Assembly: GCF_003627815.1 (NCBI RefSeq)
Contig: NZ_CP032698.1
Location: 1,550,001-1,614,000 of the forward strand
Source: Streptomyces hundungensis
GTDB lineage: Bacteria; Actinomycetota; Actinomycetes; Streptomycetales; Streptomycetaceae
Reading direction: 5' to 3'
Length of the DNA: 64,000 nucleotides
In this document: in pieces, positions 49,283 to 53,424 of the stretch
How positions within the stretch are numbered: the first letter of the stretch is position 1
Layout of the letters: every line of letters begins with the position of its first letter
The notes under the pieces: model-generated
The model's database searches: none
The model's input: the letters and a program-made list of their open reading frames with translations, nothing else
Told to the model about the DNA's origin: nothing
Made by a program: the position numbers and the translations under genes

Positions 49283-49699
49283 TTGTCCACCGTCATCGAG
49301 CAGCCCGTCCAGGTGCGCCTGATCGCGTCCGCGCCCCGTATGGAAACCGTGCCCGCGACGCTGCGCTACGACCCCGATGACCCCTTCGCCGTCCACATGG
49401 CCTTCCCCGCCCCGGCCACCCTCGAAGGCGCCGAGGTCTCCTGGGAGTTCGCCCGCGAGCTGCTCGAAGCGGGCATCGAGGAGCCGGCCGGAGTGGGCGA
49501 CGTCCGGGTGCGGCCGTACGGCTACGACCGCACGGTGCTCGAATTCCACGCCCGTGAAGGCGTCGCCATGGTCCACATCCGCACCTCCGAAGTGCGTCGC
49601 TTCCTCGAACGCACCCGGCTCGTGGTGCCGCCCGGCCGGGAGTACCAGCACCTCGACCTGGACGGCGACCTCACCGCGCTGCTGCGCGACGCCTGCTGA
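49283..49699 (+). CDS. ssgD: SsgA-like sporulation/cell division protein SsgD
   Basis: A 138-residue SALP-family protein, found only in morphologically complex actinomycetes, where members direct septum and peptidoglycan events. The family core is LRYDPDDPFAVHMAFP, VRVRPYGYDRTVLEF and ERTRLVVPPGREYQHLDLD. The N-terminus STVIEQPVQVRLIASAPRM and the position match S. coelicolor SsgD better than SsgA or SsgB. The start is TTG 49283 with GGGAGCAGGG upstream. Confidence 0.88.
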   Translation: MSTVIEQPVQVRLIASAPRMETVPATLRYDPDDPFAVHMAFPAPATLEGAEVSWEFARELLEAGIEEPAGVGDVRVRPYGYDRTVLEFHAREGVAMVHIRTSEVRRFLERTRLVVPPGREYQHLDLDGDLTALLRDAC

Positions 49700-49839
49700 T
49701 ACACCCCCGCAGAACGCACACCTGCCGCACCGCCTCCGCTCCTGCCCGGTCGCGGCGGTGCCCGACGCCTGTGCCCCTCGCCCTCTTGCCCCCGACCCGC
49801 GCCTGATCACCGGGCGTGCGGGCCCCGCTTTTAAATGGT
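49700..49839. other. Gap between ssgD and the ABC-F promoter
   Basis: 140 bp without a gene, GC-rich and pyrimidine-biased on the plus strand. A short AT-rich tract (TTTTAAATGG, 49829-49838) lies just before the -35 of the ABC-F gene and may act as an upstream promoter element. No clear ssgD terminator is seen. Confidence 0.4.
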
Positions 49840-49868
49840 TTGCGGGACGCGGGGCGTCGGCGTAGGTT
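49840..49868 (+). promoter_or_regulatory. Promoter of the leader-controlled ABC-F gene
   Basis: TTGCGG (49840-49845), exactly 17 bp, TAGGTT (49863-49868) is a strong Streptomyces housekeeping-type promoter. Transcription from about 49875 would give a leader of roughly 208 nt before the ABC-F ATG. Confidence 0.7.
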
Positions 49869-49905
49869 CGTGTCTGGCCCTGTTGTCGTCGAATGGAGTA
49901 GGACG

Positions 49906-49917
49906 TTGCTCGTCTGA
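49906..49917 (+). CDS. Three-codon upstream ORF (TTG-CTC-GTC-stop)
   Basis: TTG CTC GTC TGA encodes Met-Leu-Val and is preceded by GGAG at 49895-49898 with a 7-nt spacer, an ideal ribosome-binding site. A still shorter ATG-GAG-TAG overlaps that site. Minimal uORFs of this type sense ribosome-targeting antibiotics in ABC-F leaders. Five bases after its stop begins the left arm of the leader stem, within the footprint of a ribosome paused on the uORF. Confidence 0.55.
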   Translation: MLV

Positions 49918-49922
49918 GGCCC

Positions 49923-50039
49923 CTGAGACACCGTTTCGCGCACTCCCTTCCGTGTCGCGCGCGCCGGTGTGACTGCTGCCTCCGAGCCATGTCCCCCACC
50001 ACGACCAGGGCCTTTTTCCTGCCCTGAGCGGTGTCTCAG
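49923..50039 (+). promoter_or_regulatory. Leader RNA stem, putative ribosome-mediated attenuator
   Basis: CTGAGACACCG (49923-49933) and CGGTGTCTCAG (50029-50039) are perfectly complementary over 11 bp across 95 nt. Inside, CAGGGC (50006-50011) pairs with GCCCTG (50021-50026) around a CTTTTTCCT loop containing five U. The outer right arm ends 43 nt before the ABC-F ATG. A ribosome stalled on the upstream ORF would cover the left arm and change the fold, which is how such leaders switch on ABC-F genes. Confidence 0.65.
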
Positions 50040-50082
50040 AACCCCCGTTGCCCCCTTCCTTCCCCGCAACCGGGAGACCCGT

Positions 50083-51723
50083 ATGTCATCTTTCCCTCCT
50101 CAGATCAGCTCCGCCGCGCTGTCCTTCGCGTGGCCGGACGGCACCCCCGTCTTCGAGGACTTCCAGCTCTCCGTCGGCCCCGGCCGCACCGGGCTCGTCG
50201 GCCTCAACGGGTCCGGCAAATCAACCCTGTTGAAGCTGATCGCCGGTGTCCTCACGCCGACCGACGGCAGCGTCACCATCGCGGGCGAGGTCGGTCATCT
50301 GCCGCAGAACCTGGTCCTCGACACCGCTTTGCGGGTGGACCAGGCGCTCGGCATCGACGCGGTCCGCGCCGCCCTGCACGCCATTGAGGACGGCGACGCC
50401 GACGAGCGCCACTTCGAGACGGTGGGCGACGACTGGGACGTCGAGGAGCGGGCCCGCGCCACCCTCGACCAGCTCGGCCTCGGGTCCATCGGTCTCGACC
50501 GCACGATCGGCGAGGTCTCAGGCGGCGAGTCGGTGCTGCTGCGGCTGGCCGCGCTGCTCCTGCGCCGCCCGGACGTGCTGCTGCTGGACGAGCCCACCAA
50601 CAACCTGGACCTGCCGGCCCGACGGCGGCTGTACGACGCGGTCGACGCCTGGAGCGGAGTGCTCGTGGTGGTCAGCCACGACCGGGAGCTGCTGGACCGG
50701 GTGGACCGGATCGCCGACCTCCGCGAGGGCCAACTCACGTGGTACGGCGGGAACTTCACGTCGTACGAGGAAGCCCTGCGGGCCGAGCAGGAGGCGGCCG
50801 AGCGGATGGTGCGGGTCGCCGAGGCCGATGTGCAGCGCCAGAAGCGTGAACTGTCCGACGCCCAGGTCAAGTTGGCCCGGCGACGGCGTTATGGGCAGAA
50901 GAGTTACGACAACAAGGTGGTGCCGAGGATCGTCGCCAACAACCGGCGTCGCGAGGCGCAGGTGTCGGCGGGCAAGCACCGCATCCTCCAGACCGAGCGC
51001 CTCGGCCAGGCGCGCGAGCGGCTCGACCAGGCCGTGGAGGCGGTGCGCGACGACGAGGAGATCCGCATCGAACTCCCCTCCACCAAGGTGCACCCCGGCC
51101 GCTCCGTCCTGACCCTGCGCGAGCTCCAACTCCCTTACGGCGCGCGGATGGAGGGGGAACTCGAGGTGCGCGGACCGGAGCGGATCGCCCTGGTGGGCCG
51201 CAACGGCTCGGGCAAGACGACGCTGCTGCGCACGCTCGCGGGGCAGTTGCAACCGGTGGCGGGCGAGGCGGTGACCCATGTGCCGCTGCGGTTTCTGCCC
51301 CAGCGCCTCGACGTGCTCGACGACACGCTGAGCGTGGTGGAGAACGTGGCCCGCTACGCACCGGGGGCGACGGACAACGCGATCAGGGCGCGGCTTGCGC
51401 GCTTCCTGTTCAAGGGGGCCAGGGCCGCCCAGCCGGCCGGGACCCTCTCGGGCGGGGAGCGTTTTCGTGCCGCGCTCGCCGCGCTGCTGCTCGCGGAGCC
51501 CGCGCCCCAACTGCTGATGCTGGACGAGCCCACCAACAATCTGGACATGGCCAGCGTGCGCGCTCTGCAAGCCGCGCTCGACGCCTATGAGGGCGCGCTG
51601 ATCGTGGCGAGCCATGACGTGCCGTTCCTGGAGTCGATCGGCGTCACCCGCTGGCTGCTGCTCGACGGCGCACTCGCCGACACCACGGCCGAGGAGGTCA
51701 CCGGCGGGCTCGGGGCCCGCTGA
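50083..51723 (+). CDS. ABC-F ATPase, probable antibiotic-resistance ribosome protection factor
   Basis: Soluble twin-ATPase of 546 residues. Walker A motifs are GLNGSGKST and GRNGSGKTT; signatures are VSGGESVLLRLA and LSGGERFRAALA; Walker B segments are VLLLDEPTNNLDL and LLMLDEPTNNLDM. The linker between domains (KRELSDAQVKLARRRRYGQK region, about 265-300) is long and basic, as in proteins that reach the ribosomal peptidyl-transferase centre. No membrane domain exists. The GGGAG site lies 7 nt before ATG 50083. The leader with uORF and stem supports drug-inducible expression; the drug class is unknown. Confidence 0.92.
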   Translation: MSSFPPQISSAALSFAWPDGTPVFEDFQLSVGPGRTGLVGLNGSGKSTLLKLIAGVLTPTDGSVTIAGEVGHLPQNLVLDTALRVDQALGIDAVRAALHAIEDGDADERHFETVGDDWDVEERARATLDQLGLGSIGLDRTIGEVSGGESVLLRLAALLLRRPDVLLLDEPTNNLDLPARRRLYDAVDAWSGVLVVVSHDRELLDRVDRIADLREGQLTWYGGNFTSYEEALRAEQEAAERMVRVAEADVQRQKRELSDAQVKLARRRRYGQKSYDNKVVPRIVANNRRREAQVSAGKHRILQTERLGQARERLDQAVEAVRDDEEIRIELPSTKVHPGRSVLTLRELQLPYGARMEGELEVRGPERIALVGRNGSGKTTLLRTLAGQLQPVAGEAVTHVPLRFLPQRLDVLDDTLSVVENVARYAPGATDNAIRARLARFLFKGARAAQPAGTLSGGERFRAALAALLLAEPAPQLLMLDEPTNNLDMASVRALQAALDAYEGALIVASHDVPFLESIGVTRWLLLDGALADTTAEEVTGGLGAR

Positions 51724-51969: not shown

Positions 51970-52938
51970 GTGACGATCACTTCTCCCCACCTCGGCAGTT
52001 CGGACGCGTGGACCGACGCCCGGCTGCTGTTCGCGCTGGAAGAGGTAGTCGAAAAGGAGCTCAACCGGCACCTCAAGGTCGCCAAGGACTGGATGCCGCA
52101 CGACTACGTGCCGTGGTCGGACGCCCGCAACTTCCCCGGTCTCTTCGAGGACGGCGAGGCCTGGGAGCCCCAGCAGTCCAAGGTGACCGACATCGGCAAG
52201 ATCGCCCTGGTGGTCAATCTGCTCACCGAGGACAACCTGCCGAGCTACCACCACGAGATCGCCTCGCTGTTCGGGCGCGACGGCGCCTGGGGCACCTGGG
52301 TGCACCGCTGGACCGCCGAGGAGGGCCGCCACGGCATCGTGATGCGGGACTATCTGCTCGCCTCGCGGGCCGTGGACCCGGACAAGCTGGAGCAGTTCCG
52401 CATGGCGCACATGAGCGAGGGCTTCGAGTCGGACAACCGGCACTCGATGCTGCACTCGGTGGCCTATGTGGCCTTCCAGGAGCTCGCCACCCGGGTTTCG
52501 CACCGCAACACCGGCCACCAGTCGGGCGACCCGGTGTGCGACCGGATGCTGGCGCGGATCGCGACCGACGAGAACCTACACATGGTCTTCTACCGCAACC
52601 TCCTGGGCGCGGCCTTCGAGCTCGCCCCGGACCTGACGATGCAGTCGGTGCGCGATGTCGTCGTGAACTTCCGGATGCCCGGTCACGGCATGCCGGGCTT
52701 CGAGCGGGCGGCCGCGCAGATGGCGATCGGCGAGATCTACAACATGCGCATCCACCACGACGACGTGCTCCAGCCGGTGCTGCGCAACCTCAGGGTCCTG
52801 GAGATCGACGGGCTCGGCCCCGAGGGTCTCAAGGCCCAGGAGGAGCTCGGCCTGTACATGGGCGGGCTCGACGCCGAGGCGTCCAAGTTCGACGAGAAGC
52901 TCGCCGCGCGCAAGGCCCGGATGGCCGCTCGCCGCTGA
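51970..52938 (+). CDS. Acyl-ACP desaturase (ferritin-like di-iron)
   Basis: A 322-residue soluble desaturase of the plant stearoyl-ACP type, which inserts a cis double bond into acyl-ACP. The di-iron ligands are in TAEEGRHGIVMRDYL and IATDENLHMVFYRN, with the first Glu in FALEEVVEKELNRH. No transmembrane segments are seen. It needs ferredoxin and a reductase encoded elsewhere. GTG 51970 is chosen; the upstream CCTGGAGCACACCC gives a GGAG site 8 nt before it. Confidence 0.92.
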   Translation: MTITSPHLGSSDAWTDARLLFALEEVVEKELNRHLKVAKDWMPHDYVPWSDARNFPGLFEDGEAWEPQQSKVTDIGKIALVVNLLTEDNLPSYHHEIASLFGRDGAWGTWVHRWTAEEGRHGIVMRDYLLASRAVDPDKLEQFRMAHMSEGFESDNRHSMLHSVAYVAFQELATRVSHRNTGHQSGDPVCDRMLARIATDENLHMVFYRNLLGAAFELAPDLTMQSVRDVVVNFRMPGHGMPGFERAAAQMAIGEIYNMRIHHDDVLQPVLRNLRVLEIDGLGPEGLKAQEELGLYMGGLDAEASKFDEKLAARKARMAARR

Positions 52939-53069: not shown

Positions 53070-53321
53070 TCAGCCCTGGCGCGTGCGTTGCAGCGCGAAC
53101 CGTTCCTTCTCGGAGAGGCCGCCCCACACGCCGAATCGCTCGTCGTGGGCCAGCGCGTACTCAAGACATGCCGTGCGTTGTTCGCAGGCTCCGCAGAGCT
53201 GCTTGGCCTCACGCGTCGAGCTGCCCGGGGCGGGGAAGAAGAACTCGGGGCCCGCCTGGCGGCACAACGCGGTCTCCTGCCAAGCGAGTTCCTGGCCGGC
53301 GGTCATGGTGTCGTTCAGCAT
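53070..53321 (-). CDS. wblJ: WhiB-family Fe-S regulatory protein, WblJ-like
   Basis: A small (83-residue from this start) actinobacterial regulator that binds a [4Fe-4S] cluster. The four Cys are in TALCRQAG, LCGACEQRTAC (CxxC plus the fourth), and the turn GVWGGLSEKER precedes a basic C-terminus. Start sites are uncertain: ATG 53321 is used, with GTG 53330 and ATG 53306 also in frame and none with a clear ribosome-binding site. The name rests on order relative to S. coelicolor SCO6715. The target genes are unknown. Confidence 0.85.
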   Translation of the reverse strand: MLNDTMTAGQELAWQETALCRQAGPEFFFPAPGSSTREAKQLCGACEQRTACLEYALAHDERFGVWGGLSEKERFALQRTRQG

Positions 53322-53424
53322 GCGGCACACGCTGCCGGGCGCTGATCAACGTCCGGTCAACGAATGGTGAACGCGCCCGTCGACCCCCTGCTCACCGGCC
53401 GCCTCCGACGCTTCCAGTGGCCCG

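What the first reader, a model, noticed from the sequence alone, without database searches (positions are those of the whole stretch)
49840..50082. ABC-F leader with a three-codon uORF and 11-bp long-range stem
Promoter, ideal ribosome-binding site, Met-Leu-Val uORF, then a left stem arm beginning five bases after its stop and pairing across 95 nt with an arm just before the ABC-F ribosome-binding site. This is a compact antibiotic-sensing attenuator: a drug-stalled ribosome on the uORF would free the right arm and switch on ABC-F. The very short uORF means initiation or the first peptide bonds are sensed, fitting drugs at the peptidyl-transferase centre.
Basis: inference. Interest (0 to 1): 0.8.

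Follow-up and report, generated by a model that had tools for sequence, protein, structure and literature searches.

The report
Streptomyces antibiotic-sensing ABC-F gene leader

Summary
The described parts are present: TTG-CTC-GTC-TGA (49906-49917) behind a good RBS, and a perfect 11-bp inverted repeat (49923-49933/50029-50039), reached in 2 of 300 shuffles. It is the leader of the are5sc orthologue (SCO6720 of S. coelicolor), whose TTG-started MLV uORF, start-codon stalling by lincosamides, tiamulin and pristinamycin IIA, and drug induction are published (PMC12421871). Comparing 147 leaders supports the arms but changes the mechanism. (1) The first ~45 nt of the transcript, uORF and RBS included, pair with a conserved middle element into a long hairpin followed directly by UUUUU (50013-50017): probably a terminator made of the uORF itself. 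(2) The right arm also lies in a hairpin over the ABC-F Shine-Dalgarno. (3) A ribosome stalled on the start codon covers the terminator strand and ends just before the left arm, so left:right pairing is predicted in the drug-stalled, ON state (median pairing probability 0.04 to 0.99). The logic is that of B. subtilis vmlR. Known kind; new is the comparison: uORF length is nearly fixed, its peptide is not, and the two layers seem separable. Opening of the Shine-Dalgarno was not shown.

The parts
49840..49868 (+). promoter-like pair TTGCGG - 17 nt - TAGGTT; transcript start expected near 49874-49876 (inferred)
   Evidence: sequence; a TTGn3 / 16-18 nt / TAn3T pair in 143 of 147 leaders, 37 nt from -10 to TTG in 107
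49876..49920 (+). 5' strand of the proposed terminator hairpin: transcript 5' end, uORF RBS, uORF and stop region
   Evidence: free fold of the window: 49876-82:50006-12, 49885-89:50001-05, 49901-06:49989-94, 49908-12:49983-87, 49916-20:49978-82; own-versus-permuted energies z -4.1 to -4.8 for the whole hairpin
49895..49898 (+). Shine-Dalgarno of the uORF (GGAG)
   Evidence: an SD motif in 147 of 147 leaders
49906..49917 (+). three-codon uORF TTG CTC GTC TGA (fMet-Leu-Val)
   Evidence: exactly three sense codons in 146 of 147 leaders; identical to are5scL1 (MLV, TTG start) of PMC12421871
49923..49933 (+). left arm CTGAGACACCG
49928..49970 (+). apical part of the OFF hairpin: left-arm bases 49928-49933 (ACACCG) pair with 49965-49970 (CGGTGT), competing with the right arm
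   Evidence: window fold; apical stem covariation z -10.2 over 35 clusters
49978..50012 (+). middle element: 3' strand of the proposed terminator hairpin
50013..50017 (+). U-tract TTTTT directly behind the hairpin
   Evidence: U-tract directly behind the stem in 73 of 132 leaders against 11.5% of random windows
50006..50026 (+). small hairpin 50006-50011:50021-50026 with the U-tract in its loop; possible alternative to the terminator
   Evidence: window fold with a start-stalled mask; z -2.9 to -4.1 over 20 clusters
50029..50039 (+). right arm CGGTGTCTCAG
50033..50078 (+). SD-sequestering hairpin: 50033-36:50075-78, 50043-45:50072-74, 50047-51:50066-70
   Evidence: window fold; right-arm 3' part plus stem against SD region z -4.3 to -5.3 over 38 clusters
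50072..50077 (+). Shine-Dalgarno region of the ABC-F gene (GGGAGA)
50083..51723 (+). ABC-F ATPase gene, 546 aa, are5sc orthologue
   Evidence: Pfam ABC_tran, two stretches; NCBIfam ribo_prot_ABC_F 344 bits, below its cut-off of 380; orthology by the published SCO6720 guide

Best explanation
This is the are5sc-type, ribosome-mediated attenuator of an ABC-F gene, with two layers. Without drug, ribosomes finish the three-codon uORF and leave; the 5' end of the transcript, with uORF RBS, uORF and stop region, then pairs with the middle element and forms a terminator hairpin followed by the U-tract 50013-50017, so most transcription stops. In transcripts that escape, the left arm is held in the apical part of that hairpin and the right arm pairs with the ABC-F Shine-Dalgarno region, holding translation down too. 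When a drug of the peptidyl-transferase centre stalls the ribosome on the TTG start codon, it covers about 49886-49921: the 5' strand of the terminator cannot pair, transcription goes on, and the uncovered left arm (from 49923) pairs with the right arm and takes it off the Shine-Dalgarno region. Shown by others for the orthologue: uORF translation, start-codon stalling, induction in transcriptional and translational fusions. Shown here: conservation, covariation, geometry, U-tract. Inferred: that this hairpin terminates in vivo, the order of events, and how much the SD layer adds.
For: Orthologue published with the same uORF and drug response. Covariation by own-versus-permuted duplex energies over leader clusters: arms -4.4 to -5.5, right arm plus stem with SD region -4.3 to -5.3; transcript 5' end with the stretch before the U-tract -3.3 to -4.1, uORF region with middle element -5.2 to -6.0, two controls between -1.3 and +0.7. 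U-tract directly behind the stem in 73 of 132. A start-codon mask moves left:right pairing from mean 0.35 (median 0.04) to 0.76 (0.99) and right-arm:SD pairing from 0.54 to 0.24 (143 of 147 leaders). uORF length nearly fixed, nine peptides; GAGG begins at nt 11 from the start codon in 146 of 147. Compensating arm changes in L043, L008, L044/L046, and of the GAGGTC:GACCTC stem in L228.
Against: The SD stays mostly paired in all three folded states (mean unpaired 0.122 free, 0.117 start-stalled, 0.066 terminating; start above free in 28, below in 36 of 143). RNAalifold on 22 leaders recovered only part of the long hairpin. The pair count is 94.3% paired and 3 pairs with double changes, reached by 13 of 500 shuffles, but the structure slid by -3 columns also has 3 such pairs and more such cells (6 against 3), though only 33.2% paired. 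59 of 132 stems have no U-tract directly behind. A terminating ribosome would also cover part of the terminator strand, so repression needs the uORF to be empty when the middle element emerges. Permutation among clusters is not a phylogenetic test.
Confidence: 0.68

Rival explanations
1. One reading: left:right pairing is the OFF structure, and the drug-stalled ribosome breaks it to release the ABC-F ribosome-binding site.
For: The arms are conserved and the right arm lies shortly before the SD.
Against: The start-stalled ribosome, the published stall site, ends just before the left arm; masking it raises left:right pairing. The right arm itself does not contain the SD; it can pair with the SD region instead.
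Confidence: 0.1
2. Transcription attenuation alone: the terminator does the work and the arms and SD hairpin are minor.
For: are5sc responds in transcriptional fusions; two relatives keep the uORF and a middle element but show no right arm by eye (L228, L030); the SD hardly opens in the folds.
Against: Arms pair in 129 of 147 leaders and covary with each other and with the SD region; one clade keeps the arms and lacks the terminator.
Confidence: 0.12
3. Translational attenuation alone: left:right pairing against the SD hairpin, with the drop in mRNA seen in reporters a result of untranslated message.
For: Eleven cluster-3 leaders without the middle element keep uORF, arms and SD hairpin; the published transcriptional fusion includes a third of the coding sequence, so polarity could contribute (inference).
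Against: The long hairpin with the U-tract directly behind and its covariation are not needed by this model.
Confidence: 0.08

Closest known systems
are5sc (SCO6720) leader of Streptomyces coelicolor, uORF are5scL1 (PMC12421871: abstract, sections 7, 11, 12 and passages read)
   Same: Orthologous gene, same uORF (MLV from TTG), same kind of leader; the published SCO6720 guide matches 7 of 392 genus genomes and the gene start about 1.54 kb upstream is preceded by a TTGCTCGTCTGAGG leader in 7 of 7.
   Different: The window lacks the second overlapping frame (L2): CTG AGG CCC CTG runs on for 37 codons. The published terminator and antiterminator figure was not available to me, so I cannot say whether it is the hairpin proposed here.
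vmlR leader of Bacillus subtilis, uORF MIN (PMC9226507: section 18 and passages read)
   Same: Three-codon uORF inside a 5' hairpin, intrinsic terminator, SD-sequestering hairpin that an upstream pairing undoes in read-through transcripts; peptide variants MDN and MDK work.
   Different: There the uORF hairpin is an anti-antiterminator and the terminator is a separate hairpin; here the uORF strand seems to be the terminator's own 5' strand. Unrelated host and leader sequence.
cplR leader of Clostridioides difficile, uORF MRI (PMC10201436: passages read)
   Same: Three-codon uORF; transcriptional and translational attenuation together.
   Different: There the terminator stem itself sequesters the SD; here terminator and SD hairpin are separate.
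lmrC leader of Streptomyces lincolnensis (PMC8546547: passages read)
   Same: ARE5 gene; a uORF overlapping the terminator; response to lincosamides, streptogramin A and pleuromutilins.
   Different: Mutating the start codon of that uORF gave constitutive expression; the model here predicts the non-inducible low state.
tiaA (SCO0636) leader, uORF MVGDDDISG (PMC12421871)
   Same: Paralogous ARE5 gene with a uORF stalled at its start codon by the same drugs.
   Different: Nine-codon uORF; leaders of that type here (L230, L231, L233-L236) show neither the three-codon uORF nor the arms (by eye).

Membership tests
are5sc-type ribosome-mediated attenuator | TTG-started uORF encoding MLV upstream of the gene | tested here: met
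   TTG CTC GTC TGA at 49906-49917
are5sc-type ribosome-mediated attenuator | downstream gene is the orthologue of SCO6720 | tested here: met
   73-81% identity to the genes behind the same leader type in relatives; the published guide for SCO6720 lies in genes of that group: inside the matched gene in G224, about 1.54 kb from the leader in the other six (reading frames between were not traced). SCO6720 itself was not fetched.
are5sc-type ribosome-mediated attenuator | ribosome stalls on the uORF start codon with lincosamides, tiamulin, pristinamycin IIA, not erythromycin | not testable with these tools
   published for the orthologue only
are5sc-type ribosome-mediated attenuator | drug-dependent induction through the leader | not testable with these tools
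   published for the orthologue only
are5sc-type ribosome-mediated attenuator | second overlapping frame L2 (MRS/LRS) | tested here: not met
   no stop after three codons in the window; three-codon L2 in 93 of 147 leaders. The paper found L2 not translated, so this is not a functional criterion.
vmlR-like two-layer attenuation (works like, not a member) | intrinsic terminator in the leader | tested here: inconclusive
   hairpin plus U-tract in the window, enrichment and covariation; the simple consensus scan found no terminator; no 3'-end data
vmlR-like two-layer attenuation (works like, not a member) | SD-sequestering hairpin undone by an upstream pairing | tested here: inconclusive
   mutually exclusive pairings covary, but the SD is not predicted to open
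Rfam families (release 15) | match at or above the gathering score | tested here: not met
   window 49600-50300 gave one match, AS1890 at 49621-49724, 16.9 bits against 39

The most novel reading that the evidence does not exclude
In this family the uORF is not only read by the ribosome: its codons and its RBS form one strand of the transcription terminator. The nearly invariant MLV codons, and the published but untranslated L2 frame, would then be kept by RNA pairing with the middle element and not by the peptide, while the three-codon length sets the ribosome edge: on the start codon it covers the terminator strand and spares the left arm, on the stop codon it covers part of the left arm. 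The terminator layer and the SD layer are separable modules that different actinomycete lineages have lost one at a time.
Probability: 0.55. Interest if true: 0.5.

Novelty: new member of a known kind. Interest (0 to 1): 0.38.

Why it matters
Three-codon uORFs are about the simplest drug sensors known, and why their peptides are conserved in some families and free in others is open. This leader family suggests a testable answer: the codons are one strand of a terminator, and only the length matters for sensing. It also offers natural variants that seem to have lost one layer, so the parts played by transcription and translation in ABC-F induction could be separated in harmless Streptomyces.

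Tried and rejected
A short version of the terminator (GAGCCGTCC with GGAnCAGGGC) had no covariation support (z +1.2; -0.8 to +0.3, where failed duplexes also spoil the energies) and was dropped once the window fold pointed to the transcript's 5' end as partner; that partner was therefore found by looking and then tested on the same leaders. A pairing of GCGACC with the stretch before the right arm had none (z -1.0); the left arm with the 3' side of the apical region alone was weak (z -1.3). The SD hairpin without the right arm gave z -1.4 with one choice of segments and -3.3 to -4.0 with another; right arm with SD alone gave -2.0 to -2.9. A global column-pair scan was dominated by relatedness and not used as evidence. 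Rfam gave nothing above threshold; the simple promoter and terminator scan found neither.

Rows dropped: of 218 loci held, seven (L132-L138) were set aside as gene-internal; 147 of the other 211 passed the filter (similarity to a leader consensus, length, no N, an SD motif), so the sample leans towards leaders like the window's. One search used 143 of 147. Searches counted L199 and L054 among 134 leaders with a middle element although they lack a typical one; one search removed them (132). One search aligned 22 of the 33 representatives printed, chosen by me, leaving out among others the most divergent ones.

Full report
What is there. The window lies on an 8.4-Mb chromosome (G000, 1550001-1614000), Streptomyces by its relatives (named loci; inference). 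The leader is at the stated place: promoter-like hexamers 49840-49868, uORF SD 49895-49898, uORF TTG CTC GTC TGA 49906-49917, left arm 49923-49933, right arm 50029-50039, ABC-F gene 50083-51723. An 11-bp perfect inverted repeat is reached in 2 of 300 dinucleotide shuffles, so the arms alone are suggestive; conservation makes the case.

It is a known system. A full-text search found PMC12421871, of which I read the abstract, sections 7, 11 and 12 and passages. In S. coelicolor the ARE5 genes tiaA (SCO0636) and are5sc (SCO6720) have attenuator leaders. are5sc has the uORF are5scL1, MLV from a TTG start. [quoted passage not shown] are5sc is induced in transcriptional fusions; in translational fusions lincomycin and clindamycin induce it in all strains, tiamulin and pristinamycin IIA only without TiaA. 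The window gene belongs to the same orthologous group: the 20-nt guide published for SCO6720 occurs exactly in 7 of 392 genus genomes and a TTGCTCGTCTGAGG leader stands before the gene start in 7 of 7 (L180; L219-L224). A search for SCO6720 listed two papers, this one and a supercoiling study seen only in the listing. The upstream neighbour is an SsgA-family protein, the downstream one a fatty-acid desaturase family protein; ssgD is SCO6722 in S. coelicolor (PMC10771440, passages), which fits the same neighbourhood (inference).

Comparison of leaders. From loci, 147 distinct leaders passed the filter. The uORF starts with TTG in 147 and has exactly three sense codons in 146; the exception is L199. 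Nine peptides occur: MLV in 29 of 38 leader clusters, MLF in 5, MRI in 3, MLL in 2, and MKV, MIF, MRY, MFV and MYL in one each. GAGG begins at nt 11 from the start codon in 146 of 147. The arms can form at least 8 of 9 pairs in 129 of 147, against 1 of 147 for random 13-mers; compensating changes are seen in L043, L008 and L044/L046. Outside Streptomyces, three-codon frames followed by TGAG stand before ABC-F genes of Planomonospora (L049), Actinomadura (L050), Saccharopolyspora (L062), Amycolatopsis (L056), Kribbella (L055) and Asanoa (L047); other hits of that scan may be chance. In 121 genus genomes a 25-nt uORF pattern matched 83, with no match of its reversed control; one match (G106) looks like chance.

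Three alternative pairings. I compared duplex energies of strands from the same leader with strands permuted among leader clusters. Left with right arm: z -4.4 to -5.5. Right-arm 3' part plus following stem with the SD region: -4.3 to -5.3 (both 38 clusters). Transcript 5' end with the stretch before the U-tract: -3.3 to -4.1; uORF region with the middle element: -5.2 to -6.0; uORF codons with the last part of the middle element: -2.7 to -4.1; two controls between -1.3 and +0.7. In the window the free fold runs from 49876 to 50012 as one long, interrupted hairpin, GGCCCTG with CAGGGCC at its base and TTTTT directly behind. In 73 of 132 leaders the predicted stem is followed directly by a U-tract, against 11.5% of random windows of the rest of the leader. 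RNAalifold on 22 leaders recovered only part of this hairpin. Counting 16 of its inner pairs gave 94.3% of cells paired, at most 48.2% when slid, and 3 pairs with double changes, reached by 13 of 500 shuffles; but one slid version (-3) also has 3 such pairs and more such cells. This is supportive, not overwhelming, because the columns hardly vary.

How it probably works. A ribosome on the start codon has its front edge about 16 nt downstream (toeprint +16 reported for vmlR), at 49922 here. It covers the uORF and the GAGGC element of the terminator stem and leaves the left arm, from 49923, free. With this mask, left:right pairing rises from a mean of 0.35 (median 0.04) to 0.76 (0.99) in 143 leaders, and right-arm pairing to the SD region falls from 0.54 to 0.24. 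A ribosome on the stop codon gives 0.05 and 0.67; for the left arm this follows partly from the mask. Against full confidence: the SD itself stays mostly paired in all three folds (0.122, 0.117, 0.066 unpaired).

Two layers. Of 13 short leaders flagged, eleven form one cluster (cluster 3) that lacks the middle element but keeps uORF, arms and SD hairpin; the other two are L054 and L199. Conversely L228 and L030 keep a uORF (L030 of four codons) and middle-element remnants but show no right arm by eye. In L228 the stem reads GAGATC with GATCTC instead of GAGGTC with GACCTC, a further compensating change. The layers thus look separable; few lineages support this.

Relation to known systems. The logic is that of vmlR in B. 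subtilis (uORF MIN; PMC9226507, section 18 and passages) and of cplR in C. difficile (uORF MRI, both kinds of attenuation; PMC10201436, passages). What differs is that here the uORF strand itself seems to be the 5' strand of the terminator. For lmrC a uORF overlapping the terminator was reported, with constitutive expression on loss of its start codon (PMC8546547, passages). Whether the are5sc terminator of PMC12421871 is the one proposed here I cannot say, since its supplementary figure was not available. Paper searches made; I claim no absence from print beyond them.

Verdict. Real, conserved, functional in its orthologue, and already explained in outline. This analysis adds the probable sign of the arms, the terminator made of the uORF, and the separable layers.

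Noticed in passing
L199 (leader): A natural deletion: the middle element is gone, left and right arm meet as a tight hairpin, and the frame from TTG reads five codons.
   Followed up: partly
L056, about 82 nt before the ABC-F match: Amycolatopsis leader with a three-codon frame GTG ATC TTC TGA close behind a -10-like TAGCCT, perhaps leaderless, whose stop region pairs with the ABC-F SD and start (TGAGAC..CCTGCG with CGCAGG..GTCTCA, by eye): a possible minimal version of the switch.
   Followed up: no
L055, about 107 nt before the ABC-F match: Kribbella leader with uORF TTG CGC AAC TGA and a 9-bp pairing GAGATCTTC / GAAGATCTC from the stop region to just before the SD.
   Followed up: no
L230, L231, L233-L236: Leaders of the tiaA type in several genomes, with a longer frame close to the published MVGDDDISG and no three-codon uORF.
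   Followed up: no
window 50006-50026: A covarying small hairpin that puts the U-tract in its loop; could be an antiterminator or a protein-binding element.
   Followed up: partly
G127: L156 and L178: One genome carries two ABC-F genes with this leader type on different contigs, both with the MLV uORF.
   Followed up: no
window 49283-49699 (+) and 51970-52938 (+): Neighbours of the ABC-F gene: an SsgA-family sporulation protein and a fatty-acid desaturase family protein.
   Followed up: partly
window 53070-53330 (-): A small WhiB-family protein gene near the ABC-F gene; WblC/WhiB7 is tied to this resistance response in the literature, but this protein was not assigned to a subfamily.
   Followed up: no
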